64,000 nt of DNA from Natronorubrum sulfidifaciens JCM 14089 (lineage in GTDB: Archaea > Halobacteriota > Halobacteria > Halobacteriales > Natrialbaceae), in NCBI RefSeq assembly GCF_000337735.1, contig NZ_AOHX01000058.1, positions 5,699 to 69,698 of the forward strand, written 5' to 3'. The notes beneath the pieces are model-generated. The model was not told where the DNA came from. It searched no databases and was given only the letters and a program-made list of their open reading frames with translations. Positions 28,713 to 59,172 of the stretch are shown piece after piece; position 1 is the first letter of the stretch; every line of letters starts with the position of its first letter. Position numbers and translations under genes: made by a program.

Positions 28713-29840
28713 ATGACGACTAGCGCAATTTCGCTCGAGGCAGTGACTAAATCGTTTCGTGAGGAAACGGTACTTCGAGATATCGAACTCGAGATCGAGG
28801 ATGGGGAGTTCTGTGTCGTTCTCGGACCGAGTGGCTGTGGGAAGAGTACGCTCCTCAAGTGCATTGCCGGATTGATCGACTCGGATGACGGGACGATCTC
28901 ACTCGATGGTCGTGACACGGCTGAAATGTCGGTGCAGGACCGAAATCTCGGCTACGTGTTCCAGGAGTTCGAGGAGACGCTGTTCCCCCACAAAACCGTC
29001 GCCGAGAACATCGCGTTCGGGCTCGAGCACGGCGAACAGGAGCGATCCCCCGAAGAGATCGACGAGATAATCGATGACATGCTGTCGCTGTTGGCGATCG
29101 AGGAGACACGGGATGATCTTCCGAGCGCGCTCTCAGGTGGGCAACAACAGCGCGTAGAGCTTGCACGCCAGTTAAGCCGCGAGTGTCCGATCATGCTGTT
29201 CGACGATCCGCTTGCCGACCTCGACTACAAGTTACAAAAACGGATGGAACTCGAGATGCGGAGTCTCCATGCGGACCTCGAGAGTACGTTCCTCTACATT
29301 ACGCACAACCAGGATCAGGCGCTCAAACTCGCCGATAAACTGGTGGTGATGAACCATGGGATGATCGAACAGATCGGAACGCCGGAATCGGTGTATCACA
29401 ACCCACAAACGGCGTTCGTCTGTCGGTTCGTCGGTGACTCGAACGCGCTCGTTACAGAGGGAGTGCCGACCGATGTCGGCGACGGTGTCGTCGATGTCGA
29501 AACCGAGATCGGGCCGATCACGGCGACCACACAGAACGGAACCGAGAAGGAGACCGGTATCGTGATCGTTCGCCCCGAGGCCGTCTCGCTCGACACAGCC
29601 GACTGTGAGACGACGGTGACCGGCGTTCTCGAGGGACGGACGTACACCGGCGAAACGACCGAGTTTGCACTGTCGATCGACGGACTCGACCGTGAGTTCT
29701 ACGTTGTCGTCCCGAACGATCCAGACATTGGCTCGGTCGGCGAGACGATGGAGTTGGGGTGGAATATCGACGACGCCCTCTACTTTGAGAAACTCAGTGT
29801 AACCGATGCGGTTACCTCTAGCGACCTCCTTGGTGAGTGA
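28713..29840 (+). CDS. ABC importer ATPase A (Pot/Fbp-type, TOBE), non-canonical Walker B
   Basis: The 375-residue ATPase belongs to the spermidine/putrescine-iron-type importer family. Walker A is GPSGCGKST (38-46), the Q loop VFQEFEETLF, the signature LSGGQ (140-144) and the H loop YITHNQ. Walker B reads IMLFDDP, so the catalytic Glu is replaced by Asp165. A TOBE-like regulatory region fills the C-terminus (IVIVRPEAVSL). ATG 28713 is chosen because the family begins with MTTSAISLEAV; an upstream frame extension is not conserved. It is followed after two bases by a second, different ATPase, so the two probably form a heterodimer with two unlike ATP sites. Confidence 0.9.
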   Translation: MTTSAISLEAVTKSFREETVLRDIELEIEDGEFCVVLGPSGCGKSTLLKCIAGLIDSDDGTISLDGRDTAEMSVQDRNLGYVFQEFEETLFPHKTVAENIAFGLEHGEQERSPEEIDEIIDDMLSLLAIEETRDDLPSALSGGQQQRVELARQLSRECPIMLFDDPLADLDYKLQKRMELEMRSLHADLESTFLYITHNQDQALKLADKLVVMNHGMIEQIGTPESVYHNPQTAFVCRFVGDSNALVTEGVPTDVGDGVVDVETEIGPITATTQNGTEKETGIVIVRPEAVSLDTADCETTVTGVLEGRTYTGETTEFALSIDGLDREFYVVVPNDPDIGSVGETMELGWNIDDALYFEKLSVTDAVTSSDLLGE

Positions 29841-29842
29841 TA

Positions 29843-31042
29843 ATGTCTGACACAGAATACTCCGGGGCGGACACATCGGCAGCCGAACCGACACCCGACG
29901 TGACGGACGACGTCGCACTCGATGTCCGGGGACTGACGAAAATCTACCCCGACGGGACGCTCGCCGTCGATGACATCGATTTCAGCATCAACGACGGGGA
30001 TTTCTGCGTGCTGATCGGCCCCAGCGGCTGTGGGAAGTCGACGACGCTGCACTCGCTTGTCGGCAAAATTCCGGTGACTGAGGGCGAAGTACGACTCGGT
30101 GGCGTCGATATCACCGACGCACCCACGTACGAGCGCGATATCGGGCTCGTGTTTCAGGACTTTCAGCTGTTTCCACATCTGACCGTCGGGGAAAACATCG
30201 AGTACGGACTGCAACGCCTTCAGGTCGATGCGGACGAGCGAGCGGAGCGCGTCACCAACATCGTCGAAATGATGCGCCTCGAGTCGCTTGCCGACCGACA
30301 ACCAGAAGAGCTCTCCGCGGGGCAAAAACAGCGCGTCGCACTCGCTCGGAGTATGGTCCTCGAGCCGAAGTTGCTCTTGCTTGATGAACCGCTCGGGGAC
30401 ATGGATTACAAACTCCAGAAACACATGGAGCGGGAGCTGCTTCGGCTCCACCGCGAGCTCGATACGACGTTCGTCTACGTGACTCACGACCAGACACAGG
30501 CGATGCGGCTTGCTGACCAGATCGTCGTCATGAACGATGGGAAAGTCGAGCAATCCGACTCCGTCGAGCGTGTCTACAACGAGCCGGCGACGGCGTTCGT
30601 CTCGGCGTTCGTCGGCGACTCGAACACGTTTACGGGCGAACTGACCGATGTCAGCGAGGACGGCAGCTACGCCCACATCGAAACACCGCTTGGCACGTTT
30701 CTTGCGACGACGAAGAATCTTCGCTCCGATCCACCGTCGCTCGTCGGCGAGCAGATCCCGTTCTCGGTCCGGCCACAGTATCTCGAGGTCACTGACGAAC
30801 TCGACAACAGTGTCAGCTGCCGGGTTGACGACGTGATCCATCAACCCGGCTCGGGGACGCAGGTAATCCTCGAGGCGACGACGACTGACGGAACGCCACA
30901 CGAACTCCAACTGAAGTCCTTCGATCGCATCGAGCCATCGGACACCGTTTCAGTCGGCTGGAGTGCGGATCACGCCACTCTGCTCGAGCAGACGAGCGTC
31001 GTCGACGGAATCGACCTCGGGACGGACATCCTCGGCGAGTGA
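29843..31042 (+). CDS. ABC importer ATPase B (Pot/Fbp-type, TOBE), altered signature motif
   Basis: The 399-residue partner of the upstream ATPase has a 25-residue acidic N-terminal extension. Walker A is GPSGCGKST (59-67), Walker B LLLLDEP with catalytic Glu182, and H loop YVTHDQ. Its ABC signature is LSAGQ (157-161) instead of LSGGQ. Mixed with ATPase A, the canonical site would pair this Walker A/B with the A signature, and the other site would be degenerate. The C-terminal TOBE region includes QIPFSVRPQYLEV. The stop codon TGA at 31040-31042 shares its last base with a palindromic repeat. The binding protein and permeases of the same importer lie at 33.6-38.7 kb. Confidence 0.9.
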   Translation: MSDTEYSGADTSAAEPTPDVTDDVALDVRGLTKIYPDGTLAVDDIDFSINDGDFCVLIGPSGCGKSTTLHSLVGKIPVTEGEVRLGGVDITDAPTYERDIGLVFQDFQLFPHLTVGENIEYGLQRLQVDADERAERVTNIVEMMRLESLADRQPEELSAGQKQRVALARSMVLEPKLLLLDEPLGDMDYKLQKHMERELLRLHRELDTTFVYVTHDQTQAMRLADQIVVMNDGKVEQSDSVERVYNEPATAFVSAFVGDSNTFTGELTDVSEDGSYAHIETPLGTFLATTKNLRSDPPSLVGEQIPFSVRPQYLEVTDELDNSVSCRVDDVIHQPGSGTQVILEATTTDGTPHELQLKSFDRIEPSDTVSVGWSADHATLLEQTSVVDGIDLGTDILGE

Positions 31043-33575: not shown

Positions 33576-34904
33576 ATGCCAGACGGTATCAGTAGACGAA
33601 ACTTTGTGGCGTACGGTGGCGCAGCAGCGGGTGCAGCACTTGCAGGATGTGTCGGTGGCGATGATGGTCCGGCACGACCACTCGAGTGGATTGGGCCAGA
33701 CTGGGCGGTCAGTGACGAGCAGGCTGCGAAAATGGAGGAGATGTCGGGCGTCGAGGTGAACACGACGATCGCGACGATCGGTGATACGCAGGCACAACTC
33801 CTCGGCGGCGGGTCCGAAAACACGGACGTGTTCACTTCGGATACGACCGGATCTGGGGCACTTACTCGAGACAATCCGGTAACGATCCCGATGCCGGTCG
33901 ACGACCTAGAGAACTGGGATGAAGAGCAGATTTCCGATCTGTTCACTGATCCAGCCGAGCGGCTGAGCCATCTCGGAGAACAGGTCGAGACAGTCAACGA
34001 TGAGTTGTGGGTCGACGGCGACACGCGCGACGAGATTCTGTTCTCACCATACGCGTACAACTTCGACGCGATGGGGTACAACCCATCGTTCGTCGACGAC
34101 GTCTCCCTGTGGAGTACGCAGTTCGACGAACAGTACGAGGGAGAGGTCATCGTCGGCGAAACGGCGGCGATCACCATCCCACAGGCGATCATGCACTTGC
34201 TCGATAACGACATGATCGACGGCGACATCGGCCAGTTGAACAACCCGACGCAGGACCAACTCGATACGGCGATCGACTTCCTTATCGAGCAGAAAGACGC
34301 CGGCCAGTTCCGTTCGACGTGGGAAGCCTACGGCGAGTCCGTGACGCTAATGGCTGGCGAAGAGGCAGTCATCGGCGACATCTGGCAGCCGGCAGCGATG
34401 GACGTTCGTCGAGAAGGGACGCCATGTACCTACGCCACGATGAGCGAGGGCATTCAGGGCTACCGCTACTGGTACGGCGGGATGGCGACCCTCGAGGGCG
34501 CACGGGAGCGCCAAAACGTCGAGCAGGTCACGTTCCTGTACGATCAGGTCCACCTCGGCGCGTGGTTCCCCGGCTTCGTCCAAGGTCGTGGCTACTCGGT
34601 TCCACACTACGAAAACGAGGAACTCGTCCGTGATGGCTCGGACGAATCCGGCGAAGGAATGGGGCCGGAGTACTACGACTGGGCATACCGCGGCGAGGCG
34701 ACGTACGAGGAGATCGACGAACCGTCACTGTTCGATCCGCTCGATTACGACTGGTCGATGGAAGAAGGCTCTCCCGACTCGAACGGCGGCACCCGTGACA
34801 GCGGGCCGATCGAAGAACGGATCGACCGCATTGGCTTCTTCCAGATCTGGCCCAGTGAGGCAGACTACATGGTCTCACGTTGGGAGGACTTCCTGGCTGC
34901 CTAA
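33576..34904 (+). CDS. Tat-exported lipoprotein solute-binding protein (PotD-like)
   Basis: The 442-residue protein starts with a twin-arginine motif, SRRNFVAYGG, and a lipobox, LAGC, at Cys about residue 26. It is therefore exported folded and lipid-anchored outside the membrane. The mature body resembles periplasmic binding proteins of the spermidine/putrescine class (ARPLEWIGPDW, YAYNFDAMGYNPSFVDD, WQPAAMDVRREGTPCTYA). It should capture the substrate and deliver it to the two permeases at 34953 and 37874. Because the surrounding enzymes act on cyclic amides, the ligand may be a ureide or amide and not a polyamine; this is inference. The first permease follows after 48 bases. Confidence 0.9.
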   Translation: MPDGISRRNFVAYGGAAAGAALAGCVGGDDGPARPLEWIGPDWAVSDEQAAKMEEMSGVEVNTTIATIGDTQAQLLGGGSENTDVFTSDTTGSGALTRDNPVTIPMPVDDLENWDEEQISDLFTDPAERLSHLGEQVETVNDELWVDGDTRDEILFSPYAYNFDAMGYNPSFVDDVSLWSTQFDEQYEGEVIVGETAAITIPQAIMHLLDNDMIDGDIGQLNNPTQDQLDTAIDFLIEQKDAGQFRSTWEAYGESVTLMAGEEAVIGDIWQPAAMDVRREGTPCTYATMSEGIQGYRYWYGGMATLEGARERQNVEQVTFLYDQVHLGAWFPGFVQGRGYSVPHYENEELVRDGSDESGEGMGPEYYDWAYRGEATYEEIDEPSLFDPLDYDWSMEEGSPDSNGGTRDSGPIEERIDRIGFFQIWPSEADYMVSRWEDFLAA

Positions 34905-34952: not shown

Positions 34953-35861
34953 ATGAGTTCTGAATCAAAAACCGGCGGCTCGAGTCTGTTGGGGACTGAC
35001 AGAGATGATCTGATCAACGAAGTAACGGGGTTGATCGCACCAACAGTGCTCTGGTTTGCCGTCTTCTTACTGTTGCCGTTGCTCGTCATTTTCTACTACA
35101 GCTTCCTCACGTACCAGTCGTTCAACGTCATAAACGAGTTCACGCTCTCGGCGTGGGTCGATGGCGTGTTCGGCTCCGGTGCGGTTCGGGGTGCGTTCGT
35201 CCGAACGATCGGCGTCGGAATCATCGTGACCATAATCACGCTCGCGTTCGGCTACCCGCTCGCGTACTACCTGCGGTTTCACACCACGCCGATGGTTGGA
35301 CTCGTCTTGCTGTTGTTTCTGGTCATCCCGTTCTGGACGTCTGAGCTGATCCGGACGTTCGGCTGGTTTCCAATCTTGGGACGAAACGGGGTCGTCAACG
35401 GGCTGTTGATGACGCTTGGGATCACCAGTGGGCCGATCGGCTGGCTCCTGTTTTCCGGGTTCTCACAGGCAGTCGGCTATCTCCAGAACTACGTGGTGTT
35501 CATGGCAGCCCCGATCTACATCTCGCTGTCACAGATCGATGAAGGACTGCTCAACGCCTCCGAAACGCTGCGCGGAAACCCGGTGGAGACGTTCAAAAAC
35601 GTCACATGGCCGCTGAGCCTGCCCGGCGTCGCGATCGGCTGTATGTTCACGTTCGTGCTGACGATCGGGAACTTCACCGTGCCGTCGTTTCTCAGTGGCG
35701 GTGCCAACACGGTGCCGACGCTGATCTTCAGCCGCTACAGTCAGGGACTCAACTACCCATCGGCTGCGGCGCTCTCGATCACACTGCTCGTCGTCATCTT
35801 CGCGTTCGTCTTCCTGCTGTTCAGAGTCGTCGACATCACCGAGATCGCGAGCCAAGACTGA
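34953..35861 (+). CDS. ABC importer permease 1 (PotB-like)
   Basis: The 302-residue protein has six membrane helices. The cytoplasmic EAA loop that docks the ATPases is SQIDEGLLNASETLRGNPVETFKNVTWPLSLPGV. An N-terminal helix, LIAPTVLWFAVFLLLPLLVIFYY, starts the typical PotB layout, and FWTSELIRTFGWFPILG before helix 3 is also characteristic. It is co-transcribed with the binding protein. The partner permease is separated from it by the minus-strand chaperonin-like gene. Confidence 0.92.
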   Translation: MSSESKTGGSSLLGTDRDDLINEVTGLIAPTVLWFAVFLLLPLLVIFYYSFLTYQSFNVINEFTLSAWVDGVFGSGAVRGAFVRTIGVGIIVTIITLAFGYPLAYYLRFHTTPMVGLVLLLFLVIPFWTSELIRTFGWFPILGRNGVVNGLLMTLGITSGPIGWLLFSGFSQAVGYLQNYVVFMAAPIYISLSQIDEGLLNASETLRGNPVETFKNVTWPLSLPGVAIGCMFTFVLTIGNFTVPSFLSGGANTVPTLIFSRYSQGLNYPSAAALSITLLVVIFAFVFLLFRVVDITEIASQD

Positions 35862-35965: not shown

Positions 35966-37753
35966 TCACTGGTGCCAGATCGTATCGTCCCGCTCCTCGA
36001 GGTACTCCTGATGGCGTTCCGCGTGCTCGTCGTAAATCGCATCGCCCGGCTCCGTCGGTTCGTCGGTAAACGTCGCATCGATCGCATCGTCGACGCGAAG
36101 TACGAGCAACGCGACATCGACGGCGTGGCGGTAACACCGTCGTCGAACGCCAGTCGGATCGAGTACACCAGCATCCAGGACGTCGTCTATCTCTTTCGTG
36201 GGCAAGACGAGTCCCGGCGCAGTACCGTTCGTCGTATTCGTGGTCGCCTCTCGCAGGTTCGTCAGCGTCGTCAGCGGGTCCATCCCCGCGTTCCGGGCGA
36301 GCGTCGACACGAACCGCTCCGTCGCGTCGGCAAAGGCCTCGAAAGCGAGTTGCGCCCGTCCGTCCGCCTCGAGTGCGGCCGCACGGAGTTCGCGTGCGAC
36401 CTCGAGTTCCGTCGCCCCGCCGCCGGGAAGTACCCCTGCTGGGGCAGCCGTTTCGCCGGTCGCCGTTGCGACCGCGGCGACAGCTTTTCTGACCTCCGTC
36501 GCCGCCTGCTCGCCGAGTTGGCCGTGGACACCATGGAGGAGAAACGTCACCGACTCCGGGTCGGGACAGTCATCGAAGACGACCATGCGCCGGCGCTTTC
36601 GGCGGCCCTGTCGCTTATCGATGACGTGCTGTTCGACGAGGCCAGCGGAGCCGAGATCGGCCGGCGTTACATCAGTCGAATCGACGACGGGTGTTGCACC
36701 AGTTGCCCGTGCCAGCTGTGTGAGTTTGAGCCGGTTGACGCCACGGATGCCCACGATTCCGTGTTCGACGAGCAGTTCCTGGTAGGCGTCGTTGATTCCG
36801 GTTCTGGTTACGACGACATCGACACCAGCGTCAACGAGACCGGCGACGACCTGCTCGCGGCGGCGGACGAACACGTCGTCGAACGCCTCGATGTCGTCCG
36901 GCGAGTCGACGATAATCCGCTCGCCGTCTTGCTGGAAGTCAGGGTCTTGCAGCCCACCCGTTTTGCCGTCGTTCGCTTTGCCGCGTTTGAACCCACTGAG
37001 TACCAGCACGTTCGCGTCCTCGATCCGACGGGGCATCCGCTCGTCACAGATCTCGTTTCGGTCGAGGACGGTTCCGGAGACGAGCCGCGAGTCGTCGATC
37101 GATCCTGATCGAATCTGACGGACGGCAAGGGTCTCCTCGTCGGGCATTCCGACCTGCGCGGCCGCTTCGACGGCACCTGCTGCCCAGATCTCTCGCGCCC
37201 CACCGATGTCGTTGCCCGTCATCGCCGAGCGCGCGACCATTTCGGCAGCAGCAGTCGGATCGTCGAACTCCTCGAGTGGTTTCGAAAGCGACTGTAGCGT
37301 GCGTTCGACCGTCTCGAGGGCGGCACTATACCCCTCTTCGATAGTCGTCGGGTGCACGCCACGTTCGATCAGCCGCTCGCCCTCTTTCAACAGCGCCCCG
37401 AGCAGTACCACGGTGGTTCCGACCCCATCAGGGACGAGTTCGCCGACGACATCGGTCGTTCCCGGCCGTTCCGGCACGACGAGGCGGCGAATAATCGGCC
37501 CCATCGGGTGCTCGATCGGTAACTCCTCGAGGACCGTCGCACCGTCGCTGCTAACCGTATCGACTCGCGTTTCTGGCTCTCCCGGCTCTCGATCCTCGGT
37601 GGACGAGCGGCCCGTGATCAGCGTCTCGTGGGACAGCGGGCCGACGGAACTCTCGAGAACGCCGGTTACCGCTCGCGCAGCGACGATGTTTGCGTGTGGA
37701 AACTGTAACTCCCCACCAGTTTCGGTTCCGTCTTCCATGTGTAACACTGTCAT
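35966..37753 (-). CDS. Divergent thermosome-like (group II chaperonin, Cpn60/TCP-1) protein
   Basis: The product has about 595 residues from ATG 37753 (the open frame continues to 37858). Several group II chaperonin blocks are clear: SDGATVLEELPIEHP (69-83), GVLPGGGATELEVARELR (about 440-458), LARNAGMDPLTTLTNLR and DDVLDAGVLDPTGV. Two ATP-site motifs are degraded. GPKG reads GPLS (38-41) and GDGTT reads PDGVG (108-112), losing the threonines that contact phosphate. It also has an unusual N-terminus and an acidic C-terminal tail. It may bind but not turn over ATP, or work with the canonical thermosome encoded elsewhere. It lies between the two permease genes of the importer, on the opposite strand. 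Confidence 0.85.
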   Translation of the reverse strand: MTVLHMEDGTETGGELQFPHANIVAARAVTGVLESSVGPLSHETLITGRSSTEDREPGEPETRVDTVSSDGATVLEELPIEHPMGPIIRRLVVPERPGTTDVVGELVPDGVGTTVVLLGALLKEGERLIERGVHPTTIEEGYSAALETVERTLQSLSKPLEEFDDPTAAAEMVARSAMTGNDIGGAREIWAAGAVEAAAQVGMPDEETLAVRQIRSGSIDDSRLVSGTVLDRNEICDERMPRRIEDANVLVLSGFKRGKANDGKTGGLQDPDFQQDGERIIVDSPDDIEAFDDVFVRRREQVVAGLVDAGVDVVVTRTGINDAYQELLVEHGIVGIRGVNRLKLTQLARATGATPVVDSTDVTPADLGSAGLVEQHVIDKRQGRRKRRRMVVFDDCPDPESVTFLLHGVHGQLGEQAATEVRKAVAAVATATGETAAPAGVLPGGGATELEVARELRAAALEADGRAQLAFEAFADATERFVSTLARNAGMDPLTTLTNLREATTNTTNGTAPGLVLPTKEIDDVLDAGVLDPTGVRRRCYRHAVDVALLVLRVDDAIDATFTDEPTEPGDAIYDEHAERHQEYLEERDDTIWHQ

Positions 37754-37841
37754 TCCGTCGGGCAGCGGATAAAAACCTATCCACGAATAGCCGTGTTCTG
37801 TCGCCGATTCAAGTATGTTGACACGAGTCATGCGCAGTATC

Positions 37842-37849
37842 TTTATATC
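37842..37849 (+). promoter_or_regulatory. TATA box for permease 2
   Basis: TTTATATC is centred about 28 bases upstream of ATG 37874. It lies in the short divergent gap with the chaperonin-like gene, so permease 2 is transcribed from its own leaderless promoter. Confidence 0.65.
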
Positions 37850-37873
37850 ATATGCCACCAGTACTCAGGGTAG

Positions 37874-38722
37874 ATGGCGACAAAGCACTCTTCGGTTGAG
37901 ACGCAGGTGGAGCAATCTGCGTTAACACGGCTCGTACAGTGGTTCGATATGAAGCGGCTGTTGGCAGCGTATTTCATCCTGATTTCGCTGTACATCTACG
38001 CGCCGATGATCTCCCTGATCGTGTTTTCGTTCAACGCAGGCGGGATCTCGCCGCCGTATCAGGGGTTTACGCTGGCGTGGTACAGTGAGTTGCTCTCCAA
38101 TCGGGGGATTCTCACCTCCGTCATGCGGTCGATCCAGCTTGCACTCGTCGTAACGGTGATTACGACGATACTGGGTACTGCCGCAGCGCTTGCATACCGC
38201 TACGATTTCCGTGGCCGCAAACTGTTCTTGTATCTGATCGTGCTCGGGATCATCACTCCGGGAATCGCGTTCAGCGTCGGCTCAACGCTGCTTCTGAACG
38301 AGGTTCTTGGATTCTCCCGATCGATGTGGCTTGCGCTACCCGCCCACGTCGTCTGGACGCTCCCGTTTGCCGTCATCGTCTTGCTCGCCGGCTTCCCACC
38401 GAACCTCGCACAGAACGAAGAGGCAGCGAGAGTCATGGGTGCGGATCGAAAGACAACGTTCAGAGAGATCGTGTTGCCACAGATCGCGCCGACCGTTCTC
38501 GGGGCAGCTGTCTTCGCGTTTACGCTCTCGTACAACGAAGCCGAACGCGGACTGCTCCTCGTTGGCCGTGACCGAACCATGCCGATGGAAGTGTTCAGTA
38601 TCGCCTCTGCGGAGCGTGCAACGCCGGAGCTGTTCGCTCTCGGAAGCGTGACAACGGTGTTCTCGACGATCCTGCTGCTCGTCGCAGGCGGTCTCGTCGT
38701 CTACGGGTCCAGACAGTCCTGA
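37874..38722 (+). CDS. ABC importer permease 2 (PotC-like)
   Basis: The 282-residue protein has six membrane helices in PotC order. The first is AAYFILISLYIYAPMISLIVFSF, followed by GFTLAWYSELLSN, a typical PotC external segment. The EAA docking loop is NEEAARVMGADRKTTFREIVLPQIAPTVLG. It should pair with permease 1 to form the channel and with the two unlike ATPases inside. The gene is separated from permease 1 by the reverse-strand chaperonin-like gene, an uncommon arrangement for a Pot system. Confidence 0.92.
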   Translation: MATKHSSVETQVEQSALTRLVQWFDMKRLLAAYFILISLYIYAPMISLIVFSFNAGGISPPYQGFTLAWYSELLSNRGILTSVMRSIQLALVVTVITTILGTAAALAYRYDFRGRKLFLYLIVLGIITPGIAFSVGSTLLLNEVLGFSRSMWLALPAHVVWTLPFAVIVLLAGFPPNLAQNEEAARVMGADRKTTFREIVLPQIAPTVLGAAVFAFTLSYNEAERGLLLVGRDRTMPMEVFSIASAERATPELFALGSVTTVFSTILLLVAGGLVVYGSRQS

Positions 38723-38830: not shown

Positions 38831-39667
38831 ATGACGTCCAAAGTATGCCTTACGTACGACTTTGACGCGGTATCGACGTGGCTGTGGTCATACGACTCCT
38901 GGGATATGCCGACACGGCATTCTCGAGGCGTCTATGGCGCCAACGTCGGTGCTCCGCGCCTGCTCGATCTCCACGACAAACACGACATTCCCGCGACCTG
39001 GTTCATCCCCGGCCACACGATCGACAGCTTCCCGGAGATCAGCGCCGAGGTGTGGGACCGCGGCTACGACATCCAACACCACGGCTGGAGCCACACCGGA
39101 CCCGCAACGTACGACACCAAAGAAGACGAGATGGCAGACGTCGAACGGGCAATCGACTCGATCGTCGACCTCACCGGTCGCAAACCCACCGGCTACCGCT
39201 CGCCTGCGTGGGACTACTCGGCGAACACGCTCGACATCTTAGATGAAGTCGGCATCGAATGGGACTCGAGCAAGATGGCCTCGGATTTCGAACCCCACTG
39301 GCTCTATGGTAACTGGAGCGCACCCGAGGACGGCCCGTACGACCGCGGCGAACCGACGGATATCGTCGAACTCCCTGTCTCGTGGCAGCGCGACGACTGG
39401 CCAGCACTGACGTTTACGTGGGCGCGCCCACACCGCATGGGCTACGTGAGCGAGGATTCGCTCTTCCAGCGCTACTACGACCAGTTCGACTGGATGCACG
39501 AGAACGTCGACGACGGCGTCTTTATTCTGACGCTGCACCCACAGGTCATCGGACAGGCCCACCGCATCTCGCGACTCGAGGAACTGATCGAACACATGAA
39601 AAGCCACGACGATGTCGAGTTCGAAGAGATGGACACCGTCGCCACCGAATTCCGCGAGAATAACTGA
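38831..39667 (+). CDS. Polysaccharide-deacetylase-fold hydrolase (PuuE/cyclic-imide-hydrolase-like candidate)
   Basis: The 278-residue protein has the NodB fold motifs: the metal-binding Asp region TYDFDAVS, HHGWSHTGP with the HxxxH metal ligands, GYRSPAWDYS, and LTLHPQVIGQ near the C-terminus with the catalytic His. There is no signal peptide, so it is cytoplasmic. This argues against an outer-polysaccharide substrate. The same fold includes the metal-independent allantoinase PuuE and bacterial cyclic imide hydrolases, so in this amide-degrading neighbourhood a ring-opening role is plausible. I cannot distinguish these from sequence alone. Confidence 0.8.
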   Translation: MTSKVCLTYDFDAVSTWLWSYDSWDMPTRHSRGVYGANVGAPRLLDLHDKHDIPATWFIPGHTIDSFPEISAEVWDRGYDIQHHGWSHTGPATYDTKEDEMADVERAIDSIVDLTGRKPTGYRSPAWDYSANTLDILDEVGIEWDSSKMASDFEPHWLYGNWSAPEDGPYDRGEPTDIVELPVSWQRDDWPALTFTWARPHRMGYVSEDSLFQRYYDQFDWMHENVDDGVFILTLHPQVIGQAHRISRLEELIEHMKSHDDVEFEEMDTVATEFRENN

Positions 39668-39689
39668 TCGACCGGCCGCGTCCGATCAG
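39664..39689. terminator. Hairpin between convergent genes
   Basis: CTGATC (39664-39669) pairs with GATCAG (39684-39689) across the 3' ends of the deacetylase-family and SHOCT-protein genes. It may help terminate both. Confidence 0.35.
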
Positions 39690-40342
39690 ATTCGATCCAG
39701 CAACTCCCGTTTTTTCGCCTCGAACTCCCGTTCCGTGAGATATCCCTGTTCGAACAGGGTTGCGAGTCGCTCGAGGCGCTCGAGCGGGTCGTCAGCCGAC
39801 TGTTCGGCAGCCGACGTGGCGTCCGTCGACTGCTCGGCCGCCGGCTGGGTCTCGAGCCGCTGGCGAAGCTGCGTGGAGGCGGCGCTGGCGGCGTCGGCCG
39901 AGCTTCGTCCAACGTCGATGTAGTATCGGGTCCCACCCTGAATCACCAGCCGCTGGTTGCCGTTTGCCGTCTCGAGTGATACAGTTGTGATGTCGTCGTC
40001 AGCGATCGATCGGTACTCGTGATCGGCGGGTGAGTTTCGCTGGACCACGACCAGCAGCCGCCGGTTCGTCACGACCGTCAGCAGGTCACGACCGTGACTT
40101 GCCATCTTGCGCGTGCGGCTCTCCTCACGACGCTCGCGGTCCGGATCATTCGTCTCGTAATCCATGAGCCGCCCGCGAAGGACGTGTTGAATCTGTTCGT
40201 CGACATCGAGCCGCTCGAGGAAGGCACGCCGATCCGCTTCGTCGAGGCCGATCCGTTCGATCGCATCGTCAGCCTGCTCGGCGAGCACGTCGCCGCCGGC
40301 TGCGGGGGCGTCTCGGGCGTCGGTTCGGTCGTCGATTGGCAT
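39686..40342 (-). CDS. PH-like / SHOCT-domain protein
   Basis: The 218-residue soluble acidic protein ends in a SHOCT domain (DDPLERLERLATLFEQGYLTEREFEAKKRELLDRI), a short oligomerisation motif found at the C-terminus of many bacterial and archaeal proteins. The middle, LLTVVTNRRLLVVVQRN...YRSIADDDITTVSLE, resembles a PH-like (bacterial PH/YokE) domain. A TATA box at 40367-40374 lies 28 bases from ATG 40342, which sets the start; an ATG at 40360 is less likely. Function is unknown; related proteins bind membranes or partner proteins. Confidence 0.8.
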   Translation of the reverse strand: MPIDDRTDARDAPAAGGDVLAEQADDAIERIGLDEADRRAFLERLDVDEQIQHVLRGRLMDYETNDPDRERREESRTRKMASHGRDLLTVVTNRRLLVVVQRNSPADHEYRSIADDDITTVSLETANGNQRLVIQGGTRYYIDVGRSSADAASAASTQLRQRLETQPAAEQSTDATSAAEQSADDPLERLERLATLFEQGYLTEREFEAKKRELLDRI

Positions 40343-40366
40343 ACACACAGCGGAAGACACGGAGAC

Positions 40367-40374
40367 GTATATAC
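40367..40374 (-). promoter_or_regulatory. TATA box for the SHOCT protein
   Basis: GTATATAC (self-complementary) is centred about 28 bases from the minus-strand ATG 40342, setting that start as leaderless. Confidence 0.6.
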
Positions 40375-40514
40375 GTTCTCGCGTGGCGACTCACAGACTG
40401 CCGCCCACGGGTCGTAGGCGGTGCTCGGCGAGTGCGTGTCCCCAGCAGTAACAGCTATACCGATTCAACGAGAACGAGTATCACTCCCACGACACGGAGT
40501 AACGCAATCGACGA

Positions 40515-40548
40515 GACTGTCGGACAGCCAGTGACAGCGCGGAGACGG
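40515..40548 (+). repeat. Partial copy of the ATACTGTCGGACAG repeat
   Basis: GACTGTCGGACAGCCAGTGA, followed by a GAGACGG-like stretch, matches the left half of the 31042-31151 element. No right half is visible. It lies upstream of the MaoC gene in the 290-base gap after the SHOCT promoter. Confidence 0.45.
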
Positions 40549-40629
40549 CCGGCAGAGAGAGCCGGTGATTCGCACGGAGGCGAAGCCGCCAGCTGCTCGA
40601 GAGCACGTCGAGCGAATCCAGAGCAATCT

Positions 40630-41196
40630 ATGACAGCAGACGAACCAACGGACAGCGAGAAGCACATTGTCGAGGGGTGGCACGGCCGCTACTACGAGGA
40701 TTTCGCGGTGGGTGACGTCTACAAACACCCGTTCGGGCGCACCGTCACTGAGACGGACAACGTCTGGATGACGAACGTCACGATGAATCTCAATCCGATG
40801 CACTTCAACGAGGCCTACGCGGCCGAAACGGAGTTCGGCGAGCGACTCGTCGACGGGACGTTCGTCATCGCACTCGCAGTGGGGATGAGCGTCATCGACA
40901 TCTCGGTCAACGCGACCGCAAACCTCGGCTACGACGACATTCGACACCACAACCCCGTCTATCACGGCGATACGATCTTCGCCGAAAGCGAGGTCCTGCA
41001 TAAACGCGAACTCGAGTCCCGCGACCACGTCGGGATCGTCACGACCGAACTCCGAGCGTACAATCAGGACAACGAGCTCGTGCTCTCGCTCGAGCGAACG
41101 CCGATGGTGCTCAAACGAAGTCACGCCGAGCCCTCGGCCGCACAGCCGCCGGGTTGGCCCGAGGGCATCGGCACGCAGCCGGAACCCGACCAATGA
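40630..41196 (+). CDS. MaoC-family (R)-enoyl-CoA hydratase/dehydratase
   Basis: The 188-residue hot-dog-fold protein begins at ATG 40630. YYEDFAVGDVYKHPFGRTVTETDNVWMTNVTMNLNPMHFNEAYA contains the hydratase-2 pattern with the catalytic Asp/Asn and His region (NPMHFN). FGERLVDGTFVIALAVGMSV continues the family core, and YDDIRHHNPVYHGDTIFAESEVL is typical of mesaconyl/itaconyl-CoA-type MaoC hydratases. It would hydrate or dehydrate a short dicarboxylyl-CoA. It overlaps the CoA-transferase by ATGA, which fits an acid activation followed by hydration. An in-frame extension upstream to 40336 lacks family similarity. Confidence 0.87.
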   Translation: MTADEPTDSEKHIVEGWHGRYYEDFAVGDVYKHPFGRTVTETDNVWMTNVTMNLNPMHFNEAYAAETEFGERLVDGTFVIALAVGMSVIDISVNATANLGYDDIRHHNPVYHGDTIFAESEVLHKRELESRDHVGIVTTELRAYNQDNELVLSLERTPMVLKRSHAEPSAAQPPGWPEGIGTQPEPDQ

Positions 41197-42635
41197 GCGA
41201 TAGACTCGAGGGCGCGATCGAACCGGTCGACGTCGAGACGGCCGCTTCCCACGTCGACAGCGATGCGGTCGTCGCCGTCAGTGGGTTCGGCGCGGTCGGC
41301 TACCCGAAGGCGCTGCCGCTGGCACTCGCCGACGACGACCGAGACCTCGAACTGACGGTCGTCAGCGGCGGCAGCGTCGGTAAGGAGATCGACACGGCGC
41401 TCGTCGAGACAGGGGCAATCGCCCGTCGCTACCCATACCAGTCCCGACCTGCGGCGCGGGAGGCTGTCAACGACGGGACGATCGCCTATCAGGATCGGTT
41501 CATCTCGGCGGTCGGTGACGAAGTCGCGCTGGGACATCTCCCGAAGCCCGACGTCGCGATCGTCGAAGCGGTGGCCGTCGGCGCAGACTGGTTCGTTCCG
41601 TCGCTGTCGATCGGCCACACGGCGGCCTACGTGCGAGCCGCACCGAAACTGATCATCGAAGTCAACGGCTCGATCCCTCGTGAGATCGGCCGGTTCCACG
41701 ACGTCTACGAACGCGAACTGCCACCGAACCGGAAGCCGATCCCCCTCGAGCATCCAGCCGATCGGATCGGCGACTCCCGGATTCGGTTCGATACGGATAC
41801 CCTCCTCGCCGTCGTCGAAACCGAAACGCCCGACGACCCCTACAGCTTCCGCGAGCCGTCGGCGACCGACCGAGAGATCGCAACCAATCTCGCGACGGTT
41901 CTCGAGGCCGAACTCGAGCGCTGTTCGATCTTCGACGATCGGATCGCGCTGCAGTTCGGCGTCGGCAGCCTCGGCAACGCGCTCATGGGTGCACTGTCGG
42001 ACATCGACTTCGGCGATCGAGACGTCTACTACTACGGCGAGGTGTTTCAAGATGGTCTCCTCGAGATGATCGAGAACGGGACGCTCACCGGTGCCAGCGC
42101 GACGTCGTTTGCGCTCTCCGTGGAGGGGCAACGGCGACTGTTCGACGACATCGATCGATACAGCGAGTCGGTCATCCTCCGGACGGCAGCGCTCTCGAAC
42201 AGCCCGGCGCTGATCGACCGCTTTGGCGTCGTCGGGATCAACAGCGCCGTCGAAGTCGACCTCTACGGGCACGTCAATTCGACGCACGTCGGCGGCTCGC
42301 GCGTCCTGAACGGGGTCGGTGGCAGCGGCGATTTCAATCGCAATTCTCCGCTTACGATTACGACACTACCCTCGAGACACGGGACGGAGACATCCTGTCT
42401 CGTCCCGATGTGTCCGCACGTCGACCACACGGAACACGACATCTCGGTTGTGATTACCGAGCAGGGAATCGCCGACCTGCGGGGACGTTCCCCACGCGAG
42501 CGTAGCCGGCTACTCATCGAGGAGTGCGCCCACCCGCAGTTCGTCGACGATCTCGAGGCATATCTCGAGCGGAGCGAGGCAAACGGCGGCCACATCCCGC
42601 ATCATCTCGAGTCGGCGTTTTTCTGGCAGTCCTGA
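41193..42635 (+). CDS. Acetyl-CoA hydrolase/CoA-transferase family (succinate/propionate CoA-transferase-like)
   Basis: The 480-residue protein is a class I CoA-transferase of the acetyl-CoA hydrolase/4-hydroxybutyrate CoA-transferase family. It would move CoA between acetyl- or succinyl-CoA and an acid made in the pathway. The active Glu region is YYGEVFQDGLLEMIENGTLTGASATSFA, and the glycine-rich oxyanion segment is GSRVLNGVGGSGDFNRNS. ITEQGIADLRGRSPRERS is the C-terminal signature. The start ATG 41193 overlaps the MaoC stop by four bases, so the pair is translationally coupled. The exact acid is unknown. Confidence 0.88.
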   Translation: MSDRLEGAIEPVDVETAASHVDSDAVVAVSGFGAVGYPKALPLALADDDRDLELTVVSGGSVGKEIDTALVETGAIARRYPYQSRPAAREAVNDGTIAYQDRFISAVGDEVALGHLPKPDVAIVEAVAVGADWFVPSLSIGHTAAYVRAAPKLIIEVNGSIPREIGRFHDVYERELPPNRKPIPLEHPADRIGDSRIRFDTDTLLAVVETETPDDPYSFREPSATDREIATNLATVLEAELERCSIFDDRIALQFGVGSLGNALMGALSDIDFGDRDVYYYGEVFQDGLLEMIENGTLTGASATSFALSVEGQRRLFDDIDRYSESVILRTAALSNSPALIDRFGVVGINSAVEVDLYGHVNSTHVGGSRVLNGVGGSGDFNRNSPLTITTLPSRHGTETSCLVPMCPHVDHTEHDISVVITEQGIADLRGRSPRERSRLLIEECAHPQFVDDLEAYLERSEANGGHIPHHLESAFFWQS

Positions 42636-42705
42636 CCGCTCGCTGTCAGTAGCCCGGAGAAACAGCTTTGCTCGCTCCCGTGAACCTCTCGTCGTGGCGC
42701 GAGCT

Positions 42706-43443
42706 ATGAAGATCAAAGCTATCAATCCGAATACGACACTCGAGATGACCGAGAACATCGGCACGGTCGCGAACAAGTACACAAGCGACGAGACCGAAGT
42801 CGTTGCCGTCTCGCCCGAGCGTGGGCCGGTCAGTATCGAATCGTACTACGACGACTACCTCGCCGTGCCAGGCATTCTCGACGAAATCCTCAAAGCCGAA
42901 GACGGCGACGAGGAGTACGACGCGTTCGTCAACTCCTGTTGGGGAGATCCGGGGCTCGATGCGTGCCGAGAAGTCACCGATAAACCGGTCGTCGGCATCG
43001 CCGAGGGCTCGATGTACGTCGCGAACATGCTGGGCGCGAACTTCTCAGTGGTCACGATCCTCCCCCGAGCGCGCGATTTTATCGAGGAAGCCGTCCGGAA
43101 GACGGGACTCGAGGGCCACTGCGCGTCGGTGCGCTGTACCGAGTTGACCGTCGTCGAAACCGAAAACACCCGTGACGCGGCAGCGGAGGCGCTCCTCGAG
43201 GCGAGCTGGGAGGCGATCGAGGAAGACGGTGCTGAAGTGATCTGTCTTGGCTGTGCCGGCATGGGCGGGCTCGACGACCCGCTCGAGGCGGAACTCCCGG
43301 TCCCTGTCATCGACAGCGTCGGGGCAGGTGCGGTCCTCGCAGAAGCGCTCGTCAAACTGGGCAAGCAGACGAGCACGATCCGGACCTATAAGCCACCGGA
43401 GTCGAAGGAGATCATCGGTTACCCAGACCGCTACCAGCGATAA
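42706..43443 (+). CDS. hyuE: Aspartate/glutamate/hydantoin racemase family protein
   Basis: The 245-residue protein matches hydantoin racemases, which interconvert D- and L-5-substituted hydantoins. It starts MKIKAINPNTT, and the two catalytic cysteines lie in NSCWGDPGLDACREV (Cys78) and VICLGCAGM (Cys183). The CxGDPG form is usual in hydantoin racemases. GIAEGSMYVANMLG fits the central linker. The start is ATG 42706; an upstream GTG at 42694 is less likely. It is 70 bases after the CoA-transferase on the same strand. Together with hydantoinase and carbamoylase genes in the window it supports a hydantoin-type route. Maleate isomerase or Asp racemase relatives remain possible. Confidence 0.85.
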   Translation: MKIKAINPNTTLEMTENIGTVANKYTSDETEVVAVSPERGPVSIESYYDDYLAVPGILDEILKAEDGDEEYDAFVNSCWGDPGLDACREVTDKPVVGIAEGSMYVANMLGANFSVVTILPRARDFIEEAVRKTGLEGHCASVRCTELTVVETENTRDAAAEALLEASWEAIEEDGAEVICLGCAGMGGLDDPLEAELPVPVIDSVGAGAVLAEALVKLGKQTSTIRTYKPPESKEIIGYPDRYQR

Positions 43444-43508
43444 GGCCGGCCTCGGTCAGTTATCGTACCGACTGAAACGGGTTACACACCGATCACACAG
43501 CTGTCGTG

Positions 43509-43540
43509 CGATCGGATGTGCACTGCCGTTCAGTGGCGAC
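43509..43540 (+). repeat. Degenerate direct repeat, copy 1
   Basis: This 32-base segment containing TGCACTGCCGTTCAGTGGCG recurs 262 bases downstream with 28 of 32 matches. CACTG and CAGTG within it can form a small hairpin. Confidence 0.6.
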
Positions 43541-43554
43541 GATCTTTAGACAGC

Positions 43555-43633
43555 GGGAGAATCCCGGCGTTTACGCCGTCATCAGAAATCTTTGATTCCT
43601 GATTGCCCGTCAGACGTAGTCTGACGACCGGGC
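43555..43633 (+). ncRNA. Run of four hairpins, possible TnpB-type right end / omega-RNA remnant
   Basis: Four hairpins lie head to tail: GGGAGAATCCC (43555-43565), GGCGTTTACGCC (43566-43577), ATCAG...CTGAT (43581-43603, one mismatch) and GCCCG...CGGGC enclosing GTCAGAC/GTCTGAC (43605-43633). Such a string just after a gene-end-like sequence recalls the structured right end and guide-RNA scaffold of haloarchaeal IS1341-type TnpB elements, but no tnpB frame precedes it here. It could instead be another small RNA. This is inference from structure only. Confidence 0.4.
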
Positions 43634-44551
43634 GTGAATCGCGTCACTTGACGACACGTTCCTGTTTGTGTTCCCACGACACTGCCGACCGGTGCACCGA
43701 ACGAGTGCACTCGAGACTGGAGAGGAGTGGCAAACACGGTCGGATTGGACACCGTCGCATGGCAGTCGACTGATCGGGTATGCACTGCCGTTCGGTGGCG
43801 ACTATTTCTTGTTGATTGCTAACACTTGTTCGGCAACGCCGGATTATATATACAACAGCCCCCGTTTCGGTATTTTCACGCCTTCAATGAACGATGATAG
43901 CCAGTATCCGCCGTTTGCATTACGGCCATACGATTGTAAGACTATGGTGCGCCAAGCAGATCAGCAGCTGATCGAACATATGCTGTATGTGACCGTCTGA
44001 CTGGATTTACAATAATACAGTTGTAATACCATTGGTGGAGACGATCTCAGATTCGGTACTCCTCTTCGAATTTCGACCGCTGTCGACAGCGATCAGCCCG
44101 CAGCCGTTCGGTTTTCGGACATCGAGCCATGCTATCTGTGTTCAGTAGTACCGTACTTTATATACAACTGCTCTTGATCTGACATATTTACTCTCGAGAG
44201 TGTCCGGATTCCGTGTCTGTTTTGCTGATCACTCGGCTATTTTGCATTGTCAAAGAAGTATACCGAGATAACGTACTGAAAGTTCCTTATATGTAGTCCT
44301 ATAGCAGTTATTTTCTTAGAAAATGCATTTATTTTACTGCCACCAGTTTCGTGTGGTGTGGCAACAAGCCAAGATCGATCCGATGACGACTCGAAGCGGA
44401 CATGGGCTCGAGTCTGAATCTCTCACTGAGATACGGTTCAATCCGGCGATAGCGAACAATATATATGATCGCCCGAACTCGCTGGCAGTCGATCGGATGA
44501 GACGGTCGACAGAGTGAACGCCAGAGAGAGCAGAAAAACGCCGTACTGATT
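43634..44551. other. Gene-poor, AT-richer stretch with orphan TATA-like boxes
   Basis: I find no supported gene. The open frames here have no recognisable protein features. Two similar boxes, TTATATATAC (43844-43853) and TTTATATAC (44157-44165), are each followed by AACAGC/AACTGC-type sequence, like promoters without genes. Composition is AT-richer than the rest of the window. It is probably a graveyard of insertion-sequence remnants. Confidence 0.45.
43771..43802 (+). repeat. Degenerate direct repeat, copy 2
   Basis: This is the partner of 43509-43540, with 28 of 32 identical bases around TGCACTGCCGTTCGGTGGCG. Weaker similarity extends about 25 bases upstream of both copies. Confidence 0.6.
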
Positions 44552-44588
44552 GACGACCGACGTTTCACTGACGGCTGTCCGACAGTAT
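44552..44588 (-). repeat. Half copy of the ATACTGTCGGACAG repeat
   Basis: Read on the minus strand, it begins ATACTGTCGGACAGCCGTCA and continues to the GTCGGTCGTC motif, matching the left half of the 31042 element. Its first base is the last base of the acyl-CoA dehydrogenase stop codon, the same relation as at 31042. The other half is absent. Confidence 0.65.
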
Positions 44589-45793
44589 CAGTACGACCGC
44601 GGTAAGTCCAGCACGTTCTCCCCGATGTAGTTGAGCACGAGTTCCTGTGTGATCGGGACGAGTCGAGTGAGCCGTGCTTCTCTGAAGTAGCGTTCGACGT
44701 CGTACTCGCGTGCGACACCGAAGCCGCCGTGGGCCTGAACAGCAGCGTCGGCGGCCGCAAACGCGGCCTCAGCGGACAGATACTTCGCCATGTTTGCCTG
44801 TGCACCGACGGCAGCCCCCGACTCACCCTCAACAGCGGTCGCAGCGCTGTACGTCAGTTGCTTTGCCGCCTGAATTTCGGCGTAGGCCTTGCTCAAGGGA
44901 TGTTGAATGGCCTGATTCTGCCCGATCGGTCGGTCGAACACCACGCGCTCGTTCGCGTAGTCGACGCCTTTCTGGATCGCCAGCTCGCCGAGGCCGAGAC
45001 ACTCCGCTGCGATTACCAGCCGCTCTTCGTTGAGCCCATCCAACAGATGATAAAAGCCGTTTCCACGCTCGCCGATGAGATTGTCGGCGGGGACGTGCAG
45101 GTCGTCGAACCAGAGTTCGTAGGCGTGAACGGCATTACTGGCTGTTTTTGGAATCGACTGTATCTCGAGTGTGCCAGCGTCAATCGCAGGCTGGATTTCC
45201 ACGAGAAACATCGAAATACCCTTCGTTCGTTTTTCCGCGTCCGATTTCGGTGTGGTTCGAGCAACGACGAGCAGGTAATCGCTCGCATCGACCCGTGAGG
45301 TCCAGATCTTCTGTCCGTTGATGACGTATTCGTCGCCCTGTTGATCGGCGACCGTTTCGATCGACGTGGAATCCGAGCCCGCGTTCGGCTCGGTCAGTCC
45401 AAGCGACTGGATCGCCACGTCGCCAGCGGCGACATCCGGCAACAGCTGTTCTTTCAGTTCGTCGCTGCCGTGGCGAACGATCGGCACGGAGTTGTAAATC
45501 CCTCCATGGATCGCCTGTGCTGCTGCAAAGCCGCCACCGCTTGCCGCGATCTCTTCCATCATGACGACGACTTCGGCGGTTCCCATCCCTGCACCGCCGT
45601 ACTCCTCGGGGATGAGCACACCCAGCCAGCCGTGGTCGCCTAACGTCGTGACGAACTCGTCAGGGTAGTCGCCGGCGCGGTCTTTCTCCCGCCAGTACTC
45701 GTCGTCGAACTCGCTACAGATATCACGGATGCTCTCTCTGACGAGTTGTTGCTGTGCTGATAGCTCTACGGTATCCGTCGCTACTGTGACCAT
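44588..45793 (-). CDS. Acyl-CoA dehydrogenase
   Basis: The 401-residue flavoprotein introduces a C2-C3 double bond into an acyl-CoA and passes electrons to ETF. Domain order is standard: an N-terminal helical bundle, then LGLTEPNAGSDSTSIET (FAD/substrate loop) and KIWTSRVDASDYLLVVART. The C-terminal helical domain has DRPIGQNQAIQHPLSK, AVQAHGGFGVAREYDVERYFRE and LVPITQELVLNYIG. ATG 45793 is preferred over GTG 45796 because a TATA box (45818-45824) is 28 bases upstream. In this neighbourhood it could oxidise the CoA thioester formed by the CoA-transferase. Confidence 0.92.
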   Translation of the reverse strand: MVTVATDTVELSAQQQLVRESIRDICSEFDDEYWREKDRAGDYPDEFVTTLGDHGWLGVLIPEEYGGAGMGTAEVVVMMEEIAASGGGFAAAQAIHGGIYNSVPIVRHGSDELKEQLLPDVAAGDVAIQSLGLTEPNAGSDSTSIETVADQQGDEYVINGQKIWTSRVDASDYLLVVARTTPKSDAEKRTKGISMFLVEIQPAIDAGTLEIQSIPKTASNAVHAYELWFDDLHVPADNLIGERGNGFYHLLDGLNEERLVIAAECLGLGELAIQKGVDYANERVVFDRPIGQNQAIQHPLSKAYAEIQAAKQLTYSAATAVEGESGAAVGAQANMAKYLSAEAAFAAADAAVQAHGGFGVAREYDVERYFREARLTRLVPITQELVLNYIGENVLDLPRSY

Positions 45794-45817
45794 CACTGTT
45801 CCTTCTGAGTTCGTCCA

Positions 45818-45824
45818 GATAAAG
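45818..45824 (-). promoter_or_regulatory. TATA box for acyl-CoA dehydrogenase
   Basis: Minus-strand CTTTATC is centred 28 bases from ATG 45793 and supports that start as leaderless. Confidence 0.55.
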
Positions 45825-45886
45825 CTACGCCCTCTCAGCGATTTTGTAGTTCCCTGCCGACAGATCGGTCACAGGCCGAGGGAAAC

Positions 45887-45895
45887 GATTAAATC
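45887..45895 (+). promoter_or_regulatory. TATA-like box for the first hyuAB pair
   Basis: CGATTAAATC is centred about 31 bases upstream of ATG 45922, in the divergent gap with the acyl-CoA dehydrogenase gene. Confidence 0.55.
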
Positions 45896-45921
45896 CTCGA
45901 GCAGAGAGAGACTGTTTGTGT

Positions 45922-49850: not shown

Positions 49851-49855
49851 TCGGC

Positions 49856-49868
49856 AATTATTTTTGAC
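49856..49868 (+). terminator. T-rich terminator after hyuB pair 1
   Basis: ATTATTTTTGA lies a few bases after the hyuB stop, before the convergent amidase gene. Confidence 0.45.
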
Positions 49869-49903
49869 GATCGAGATAGAGAGCGCTCGAGCGACGAACC
49901 AGC

Positions 49904-51337: not shown

Positions 51338-51483
51338 TGGCAGATACCTCCGTCGGGCACTCGTTCTCGGCGCTGTCCGGACTGTCGGCGGTCGCTGACA
51401 CGTCGAGTCATGCGTTCGAATGACACTCAATGTGCTTAGTCGTATCGACAGCCGTGGAGGCAGCGATTCCGGCGAGTAAAACG

Positions 51484-51491
51484 TTATATAC
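51484..51491 (+). promoter_or_regulatory. TATA box for the second hyuAB pair
   Basis: TTATATAC lies about 36 bases upstream of ATG 51524, implying a leader of about 10 bases. Confidence 0.6.
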
Positions 51492-51523
51492 TCCTTCCGT
51501 GTTCTACAGCGTGAGATGGTACC

Positions 51524-53548: not shown

Positions 53549-53550
53549 CC

Positions 53551-55524: not shown

Positions 55525-55618
55525 ACGCCTTCCTCTCGACCTGTCGGTGACGCGACGAAACGTTTTTTGTGGTAGACTGTCTCAACCACACTGCTATCGA
55601 CCGTCTACCGTTGCCGGC

Positions 55619-56122: not shown

Positions 56123-56140
56123 TCGAGCGCAGCGACGCCC

Positions 56141-56656: not shown

Positions 56657-56820
56657 ATCGGACACTTCGTGGGGAGAAAGTTAAGTCCACGATTCCGCGC
56701 CGCCGGGCAACGTGGGCGCTCGGTCACCGATCCATCGCCACATCGGAGCCGCGAGGGCGACGGCGTGTCGTCGATGGGGCGCAACTCGCCTCGAAGTCGA
56801 CACCCCGTCGATCGCTCGAG

Positions 56821-59093: not shown

Positions 59094-59116
59094 ACAGCTA
59101 CCTCTCGGGAATCATA

Positions 59117-59124: not shown

Positions 59125-59172
59125 TTTGTGTGGAAACAACACGCATATTCATCACAAACCGACACGTCGTCG

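What the first reader, a model, noticed from the sequence alone, without database searches (positions are those of the whole stretch)
28713..31042. Importer with two ATPases predicted to form one normal and one degenerate ATP site
Seen: ATPase A has LSGGQ but Walker B IMLFDDP (Asp for the catalytic Glu). ATPase B has LLLLDEP but the signature LSAGQ. Known: each ATP site pairs the Walker motifs of one subunit with the signature of the other. In a heterodimer, A-Walker with B-signature is doubly altered and B-Walker with A-signature is canonical. This is the layout of asymmetric heterodimeric ABC exporters, but here in a Pot-type importer, which normally uses one ATPase gene twice. The complementary changes suggest co-evolved asymmetry, not decay.
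Basis: partly seen in the sequence, partly recalled or inferred. Interest (0 to 1): 0.72.

Follow-up and report, generated by a model that had tools for sequence, protein, structure and literature searches.

The report
Importer with two unequal ATPase subunits
In salt-loving archaea, a nutrient-uptake pump is powered by two sister ATPases that arose by one gene duplication and have kept opposite changes, so that one of its two ATP sites should look normal and the other weakened; this is real and conserved, but not unique among importers.

Summary
ATPase A (28713-29840) has LSGGQ and Walker B IMLFDDP; ATPase B (29843-31042) has LSAGQ and LLLLDEP. I collected 23 haloarchaeal tandem pairs, with A sequences down to 50% identity. 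All 23 keep Asp in A's Walker B, never Glu. All 23 keep Ala (22) or Ser (1) in B's signature, never Gly. None of 65 background PotA/MalK-type ATPases on the tree has either change. A tree joins A and B as sister clades: one duplication, then opposite specialisation. A also has a fixed 2-residue Q-loop insertion, and the PotB-like permease has an altered EAA loop, so all four core subunits look asymmetric. Best reading: an obligate A/B heterodimer with one canonical site (B-Walker/A-signature) and one attenuated site. Three limits apply. The 23 pairs are one evolutionary event, so co-occurrence within them is not a statistical test. Both changes are mild: E. coli CcmA has LSAGQ with DEP, and Asp is reported to hydrolyse slowly. 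The layout is not new among importers: bacterial GlpS/GlpT shows it with different, stronger substitutions, and RbsA/NupO are reported to have a degenerate site. No biochemistry exists. The cassette travels with hydantoinase-type genes and a divergent chaperonin.

The parts
28713..29840 (+). ATPase A (375 aa): PotA/MalK-type ABC ATPase with TOBE_2 domain; canonical signature LSGGQ, Walker B Asp (IMLFDDP), two-residue Q-loop insertion, THN after the switch His
   Evidence: AlphaFold2 model pLDDT 87.7, best PDB hits E. coli PotA and MalK
28971..28976 (+). Q-loop insertion (Glu103-Glu104 in ORF numbering from 28665), present in all A, absent in all B and in the background
29130..29144 (+). A signature motif LSGGQ (canonical)
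29205..29207 (+). A Walker B Asp (GAT) in place of the catalytic Glu; Asp in 23/23 pairs
29843..31042 (+). ATPase B (399 aa): PotA/MalK-type ABC ATPase with TOBE_2 domain; canonical Walker B Glu, signature LSAGQ, D-loop GDMD; starts 2 nt after A's stop
30317..30319 (+). B signature third residue Ala (GCG; LSAGQ); Ala 22, Ser 1 in 23 pairs, never Gly
30386..30388 (+). B Walker B catalytic Glu (GAA, LLLLDEP)
33576..34904 (+). Substrate-binding protein of the transporter, with lipoprotein-like N-terminus; 53-98% identical in related cassettes
   Evidence: Pfam SBP_bac_8 E 5e-6, just under its cut-off; conserved in cassettes; model too poor to use
34953..35861 (+). PotB-like permease with altered EAA loop (LLNASETLRG)
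   Evidence: NCBIfam PotB 130.7 bits, below cut-off; EAA loop in 18 relatives against E. coli PotB LLEAARDLGA and 51 relatives
37874..38722 (+). PotC-like permease with ordinary EAA loop (NEEAARVMGA)
   Evidence: NCBIfam PotC 140.5 bits, below cut-off
35966..37858 (-). Divergent TCP-1/cpn60 chaperonin-like gene between the two permease genes; found in the related cassettes (role in transport unknown)
38831..63097 (.). Neighbouring catabolic genes: polysaccharide deacetylase-like, hydantoin racemase-type, two hydantoinase A/B pairs, M20 hydrolase, IclR regulator, isochorismatase, amidohydrolase; likely metabolic context of the imported solute

Best explanation
It is a PotABC/MalFGK-type ABC importer whose two ATPases, made by one gene duplication in haloarchaea, form an obligate A/B heterodimer on a PotB-like/PotC-like permease pair. 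Shown by sequence: A keeps a normal signature but carries Asp at the catalytic Glu, with all other ATP-binding motifs intact; B keeps the catalytic Glu and switch His but carries LSAGQ; both changes are held in all 23 known pairs; A and B are each one clade; the permeases are also unlike each other at the NBD-docking loop. Inferred: ATP binds at both sites and closes the dimer when the loaded binding protein docks; the B-Walker/A-signature site hydrolyses and resets the pump; the A-Walker/B-signature site binds ATP and turns over slowly or rarely, keeping the NBDs partly engaged. A's Q-loop insertion probably matches the altered EAA loop of the PotB-like permease. The solute is probably a small amide or ureide such as a hydantoin, from the neighbouring enzymes (weak inference).
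For: Motifs; conservation in 19 pairs from 9 genera and 4 named relatives, codon counts; backgrounds 39/39 DEP and [LM]SGG[QE], 85/86 DEP, and 65/65 Glu and Gly at the two sites on the tree set; tree with A+B SH-aLRT 100 and A, B each one clade (99, 100); A and B distances correlate, r=0.94; A-B genes adjacent in all pairs, start within about 5 nt or overlapping where the start is clear; one SBP, one PotB-like and one PotC-like gene per cassette; altered EAA loop only in the PotB-like permease; exporter precedent for E-to-D plus signature change in the same composite site (PMC7756269).
Against: No biochemical or structural data; heterodimerisation is inferred. The two substitutions are mild: CcmA has LSAGQ with DEP, and Asp sites can hydrolyse slowly. 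Walker A Lys, Q-loop Gln and switch His are intact in A. One evolutionary origin, so the association has little statistical weight by itself.
Confidence: 0.7

Rival explanations
1. Heterodimer in which both sites still hydrolyse at useful rates; the Asp and LSAGQ changes tune rate or fit, and the real asymmetry serves docking to two unlike permeases (Q-loop insertion, EAA loop).
For: LSAGQ with DEP in E. coli CcmA; Asp retains slow hydrolysis in exporters; all other catalytic residues intact in A; Q-loop/EAA asymmetry is as conserved as the ATP-site changes; E. coli DppDF is a heterodimeric importer in which both subunits hydrolyse (PMC12136057).
Against: The two changes fall in the same composite site; each is one nucleotide change from canonical yet never reverts in 23 pairs although codons drift.
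Confidence: 0.2
2. A and B form homodimers that serve the same or different permeases under different conditions.
For: Sister genes of PotA type, whose solved relatives PotA and MalK are homodimers.
Against: One PotB-like and one PotC-like gene per cassette; A-B adjacency in all 23 pairs; correlated A/B divergence; an A2 dimer would carry Asp at both sites; neither gene was found without the other.
Confidence: 0.07
3. A is decaying or redundant and B alone does the work.
For: A diverges somewhat faster than B (mean distance 0.41 against 0.34).
Against: A is intact in 22 of 23 loci; the Walker A, Q, signature and His residues are invariant in the 17-sequence alignment. The exception, L037 of G322, is a probable frameshift in a genome where a second cassette gene is split too.
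Confidence: 0.03

Closest known systems
PotABCD spermidine/putrescine importer and MalFGK2 (PotA/MalK/UgpC TOBE-type ATPases)
   Same: Fold (best PDB hits PotABC 8y5f and MalK), ABC_tran + TOBE_2 domains above cut-off, two PotB/PotC-like permeases, SBP.
   Different: Two unlike ATPase genes; Asp in A, LSAGQ in B; Q-loop insertion; altered EAA loop in the PotB-like permease; scores below the NCBIfam PotA, UgpC and PhnT cut-offs.
GlpS/GlpT of the bacterial glycerol importer
   Same: Adjacent pair of TOBE-type ATPases in which the first has LSGGQ but a damaged Walker side and the second a complete Walker side but a non-canonical signature; conserved in 5 divergent records, with glycerol genes beside it where annotated.
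   Different: The altered site is reached differently (switch His lost in GlpS, LTADQ in GlpT); GlpS and GlpT do not join the haloarchaeal pair on the tree (long branches), so the origin is probably independent.
Heterodimeric exporters with a degenerate site (TAP1/2, MRP1, TM287/288, BmrCD, TmrAB)
   Same: Glu-to-Asp in one Walker B and altered signature in the other NBD, in the same composite site (PMC7756269).
   Different: Exporter fold with fused NBD-TMD; no binding protein. Here NBDs are separate soluble subunits of an importer.
RbsA / NupO fused importer ATPases (B. subtilis)
   Same: Importer with one ATP site reported degenerate by sequence (PMC11466899).
   Different: Two NBDs in one chain; the second Walker A lacks its Lys; different importer class.
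DppDF dipeptide importer ATPases
   Same: Two different ATPase genes in one importer (PMC12136057).
   Different: Both DppD and DppF have functional motifs and hydrolyse.

Membership tests
PotA/MalK-type TOBE ATPases of ABC importers | ABC_tran plus TOBE_2 domain | tested here: met
   both above Pfam gathering scores in A and B
PotA (spermidine/putrescine equivalog) | NCBIfam PotA score above cut-off | tested here: not met
   287.6 and 288.4 bits against 482; subfamily TIGR01187 253.5 and 279.1 against 355.6
PotABCD-type permease pair | PotB and PotC equivalog scores above cut-off | tested here: not met
   130.7 against 348 and 140.5 against 326; they are relatives, not equivalogs
Heterodimeric ABC transporters with a degenerate ATP site | Altered Walker B Glu in one NBD and altered signature in the other, in the same composite site | tested here: met
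   23/23 pairs
Heterodimeric ABC transporters with a degenerate ATP site | The two NBDs form a heterodimer | not testable with these tools
   only gene linkage, single permease pair and co-divergence; no multimer prediction was available
Heterodimeric ABC transporters with a degenerate ATP site | One site is catalytically impaired | not testable with these tools
   needs ATPase assays; CcmA shows that LSAGQ occurs with a normal Walker B Glu
GlpSTPQV glycerol importer | Homology of the ATPase pair and glycerol gene context | tested here: not met
   different substitutions and tree position; no glycerol genes recognised beside the transporter
Type I ABC exporters | NBD fused to an exporter TMD | tested here: not met
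   A and B are soluble NBD-TOBE proteins beside an SBP and importer permeases

The most novel reading that the evidence does not exclude
A natural importer in which all four core subunits are asymmetric and which runs on one ATP hydrolysed per cycle: the A-Walker/B-signature site is a non-hydrolysing clamp, and the Q-loop insertion of A is matched to the altered EAA loop of the PotB-like permease, so that the power stroke passes mainly through one half.
Probability: 0.3. Interest if true: 0.7.

Novelty: new variant of a known kind. Interest (0 to 1): 0.47.

Why it matters
Asymmetric ATP sites are studied almost entirely in exporters. A SBP-dependent importer of the PotA/MalK kind with a conserved split of roles, with GlpS/GlpT as a probably independent bacterial parallel, offers a clean test of whether an importer needs two hydrolysing sites, and of how many ATP it spends per solute. 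It also shows how a duplicated ATPase can become an obligate heterodimer. The pair comes from one duplication and can be compared with single-gene relatives in the same genomes.

Tried and rejected
Genome-contig scan with the A alignment: the pattern SGGQQQRV was too generic and returned 80 ordinary PotA/UgpC-type loci; used only as background, biased for signatures. L083 (Conexibacter) looked like a symmetric tandem pair, but a probable opposite-strand gene lies between the ATPases. Decay of A rejected by invariance of its motifs. LSAGQ as proof of a dead site rejected because of CcmA. Paper searches found no paper on this haloarchaeal system or on the GlpS/GlpT asymmetry; the library lacks most subscription journals, so this is weak evidence of novelty. 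A-B model as a dimer: no multimer tool.

Full report
OBSERVATION. The window is haloarchaeal (own genome G000, contig 58; closest named relative in the plasmid collection Natronorubrum bangense). ATPase A runs from ATG 28713 to 29840, ATPase B from ATG 29843 to 31042. Walker A (GPSGCGKST), the Q-loop Gln and the switch His are present in both. A also has two extra residues in the Q-loop (VFQEFEETLFPH against VFQDFQLFPH in B) and THN instead of THD after the switch His.

SURROUNDINGS. Downstream lie a substrate-binding protein (33576-34904), a PotB-like permease (34953-35861) and a PotC-like permease (37874-38722), all on the + strand but separated by - strand genes (DUF3830, SDR, asparaginase, and a chaperonin-like gene between the two permeases). 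The wider region carries hydantoin racemase-type, two hydantoinase A/B pairs, M20 hydrolase, isochorismatase, amidohydrolase, polysaccharide deacetylase-like and IclR genes. This points to a cyclic amide or ureide as solute, but in Haloarcula litorea the cassette sits beside other enzymes, so the substrate is a weak inference.

HOMOLOGOUS PAIRS. Orthologues of A at E below 1e-80 occur in 19 of 392 class genomes, in 9 of 86 genera. A scan of 295 phylum genomes with the A profile found no orthologue outside the own genome: the next scores are near 1e-99, the level of B itself and of other PotA-type genes, against 1e-198 for A. In all 19 loci A and B are adjacent. Four named plasmid records add N. 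bangense, Haloarcula litorea, Halarchaeum sp. CBA1220 and Haladaptatus halobius. Over 23 pairs A's Walker B residue is Asp (GAT 8, GAC 15), B's signature residue is Ala 22 or Ser 1, and B's Walker B is Glu (GAA 9, GAG 14). A sequences go down to 50% identity. Each change is one nucleotide from canonical, the codons drift synonymously, and no reversal is seen: purifying selection holds both.

BACKGROUND. 39 single haloarchaeal TOBE-type ATPases: all DEP, all [LM]SGG[QE]. Bacterial relatives: 85 DEP, 1 DES, no DDP (signature-biased sample). In a joint alignment of 21 A, 22 B and 65 background proteins, A alone departs at the Walker B Glu (65/65 Glu in background) and has the Q-loop insertion; B alone departs at the signature Gly (65/65 Gly) and in the D-loop (Leu to Met). 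The listed matches of a 59-genome class scan showed no other adjacent pair of PotA-like genes (the list was cut at about 150 rows).

ORIGIN. A maximum-likelihood tree places A and B as sister clades (SH-aLRT 100; A 99, B 100) inside the PotA-like group (short search, no bootstrap). The simplest reading is one duplication followed by opposite specialisation. A and B distances correlate (r 0.94), as expected for genes inherited together. The better evidence for a meaningful layout is long maintenance and a parallel case.

PARALLEL CASE. An Agrobacterium genome (L118) holds an adjacent ATPase pair beside glpD: the glycerol importer GlpS/GlpT (name from general knowledge of this system). GlpS has LSGGQ but lost the switch His (ATTEP); GlpT has DEP and VTHDQ but LTADQ. 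The same holds in R. leguminosarum, Pseudosulfitobacter, Paracoccus and Photobacterium (LTADA and LNADE variants; glpD annotated beside the pair in the three annotated records). So the first gene damages the Walker side and the second the signature, giving one canonical and one altered site, by substitutions other than those of the haloarchaeal pair. GlpS and GlpT fall elsewhere on the tree, on long branches, so an independent origin is likely but not proved. For fused importer ATPases, RbsA and NupO are reported to have one degenerate site (PMC11466899). DppDF is a heterodimeric importer with two active sites (PMC12136057).

PERMEASES. The PotC-like EAA loop is ordinary (NEEAARVMGA), while the PotB-like one reads LL[N/D]ASETLRG in most of 18 relatives, with Glu to Asn/Asp (Gly in one) and Gly to Arg in all. 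E. coli PotB and PotC are both ordinary, and 51 other PotB relatives have Gly (44) or Tyr (7) at that site. The EAA loop docks on the NBD near the Q-loop (established for MalFGK2), so A's Q-loop insertion may fit the altered PotB-like loop. This is inference; which NBD meets which permease is unknown.

HOW IT MOST LIKELY WORKS. Shown: two ATPases with complementary, conserved changes, one permease pair, one SBP. Inferred: an A/B heterodimer; ATP at both sites closes it; hydrolysis at the B-Walker/A-signature site resets it; the other site is slow. The exporter literature says E-to-D is the second commonest change in degenerate sites after signature changes, and that such sites hydrolyse far more slowly than transport (PMC7756269). 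Reference titles in the same review name one-site function in the histidine permease and positive cooperativity in maltose transport, so importers may differ in tolerance to a weak site.

CAVEATS. E. coli CcmA has LSAGQ with DEP, so LSAGQ alone is no proof of a weak site. No multimer model could be made; the A monomer model (pLDDT 87.7) matches PotA and MalK. The SBP model was useless.

VERDICT. Confirmed observation; interpretation partly supported; a new variant of a known kind. A specialist would find it a useful natural test system, not a new principle.

Noticed in passing
window 35966-37858 (-): A fourth, divergent TCP-1/cpn60-like chaperonin gene (32-37% identical to the genome's three thermosome genes) sits between the two permease genes and is found with the transporter in nearly every cassette examined. 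It has lost the usual GDGTT motif (DGVGTT or similar) and the GPxGMDKM motif, so it may not hydrolyse ATP in the normal way; a dedicated chaperonin-like partner of this pathway is possible.
   Followed up: partly
L118, L184-L187 (GlpS/GlpT): The bacterial glycerol importer's ATPase pair has a strongly asymmetric set of ATP-site motifs, conserved over five records; no paper on this was found in the held library.
   Followed up: partly
L037:8805-9960 (G322): ATPase A appears frameshifted in this one genome, where the M20 hydrolase gene also splits into two hits; probably assembly or sequencing errors.
   Followed up: no
L158 (N. bangense plasmid), L159: The cassette lies on plasmids near integrase/recombinase genes and has a patchy distribution (19 of 392 genomes), with gene order reshuffled between cassettes; it looks horizontally mobile.
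   Followed up: no
window 45916-55524: Two separate hydantoinase A/B pairs in one locus, divided by an amidase-like gene.
   Followed up: no
window 662-2557: Long open frames with repeated similar segments (VDVTCLVDA..VELVAL type) on both strands, suggesting a repeat-rich gene here; not analysed.
   Followed up: no
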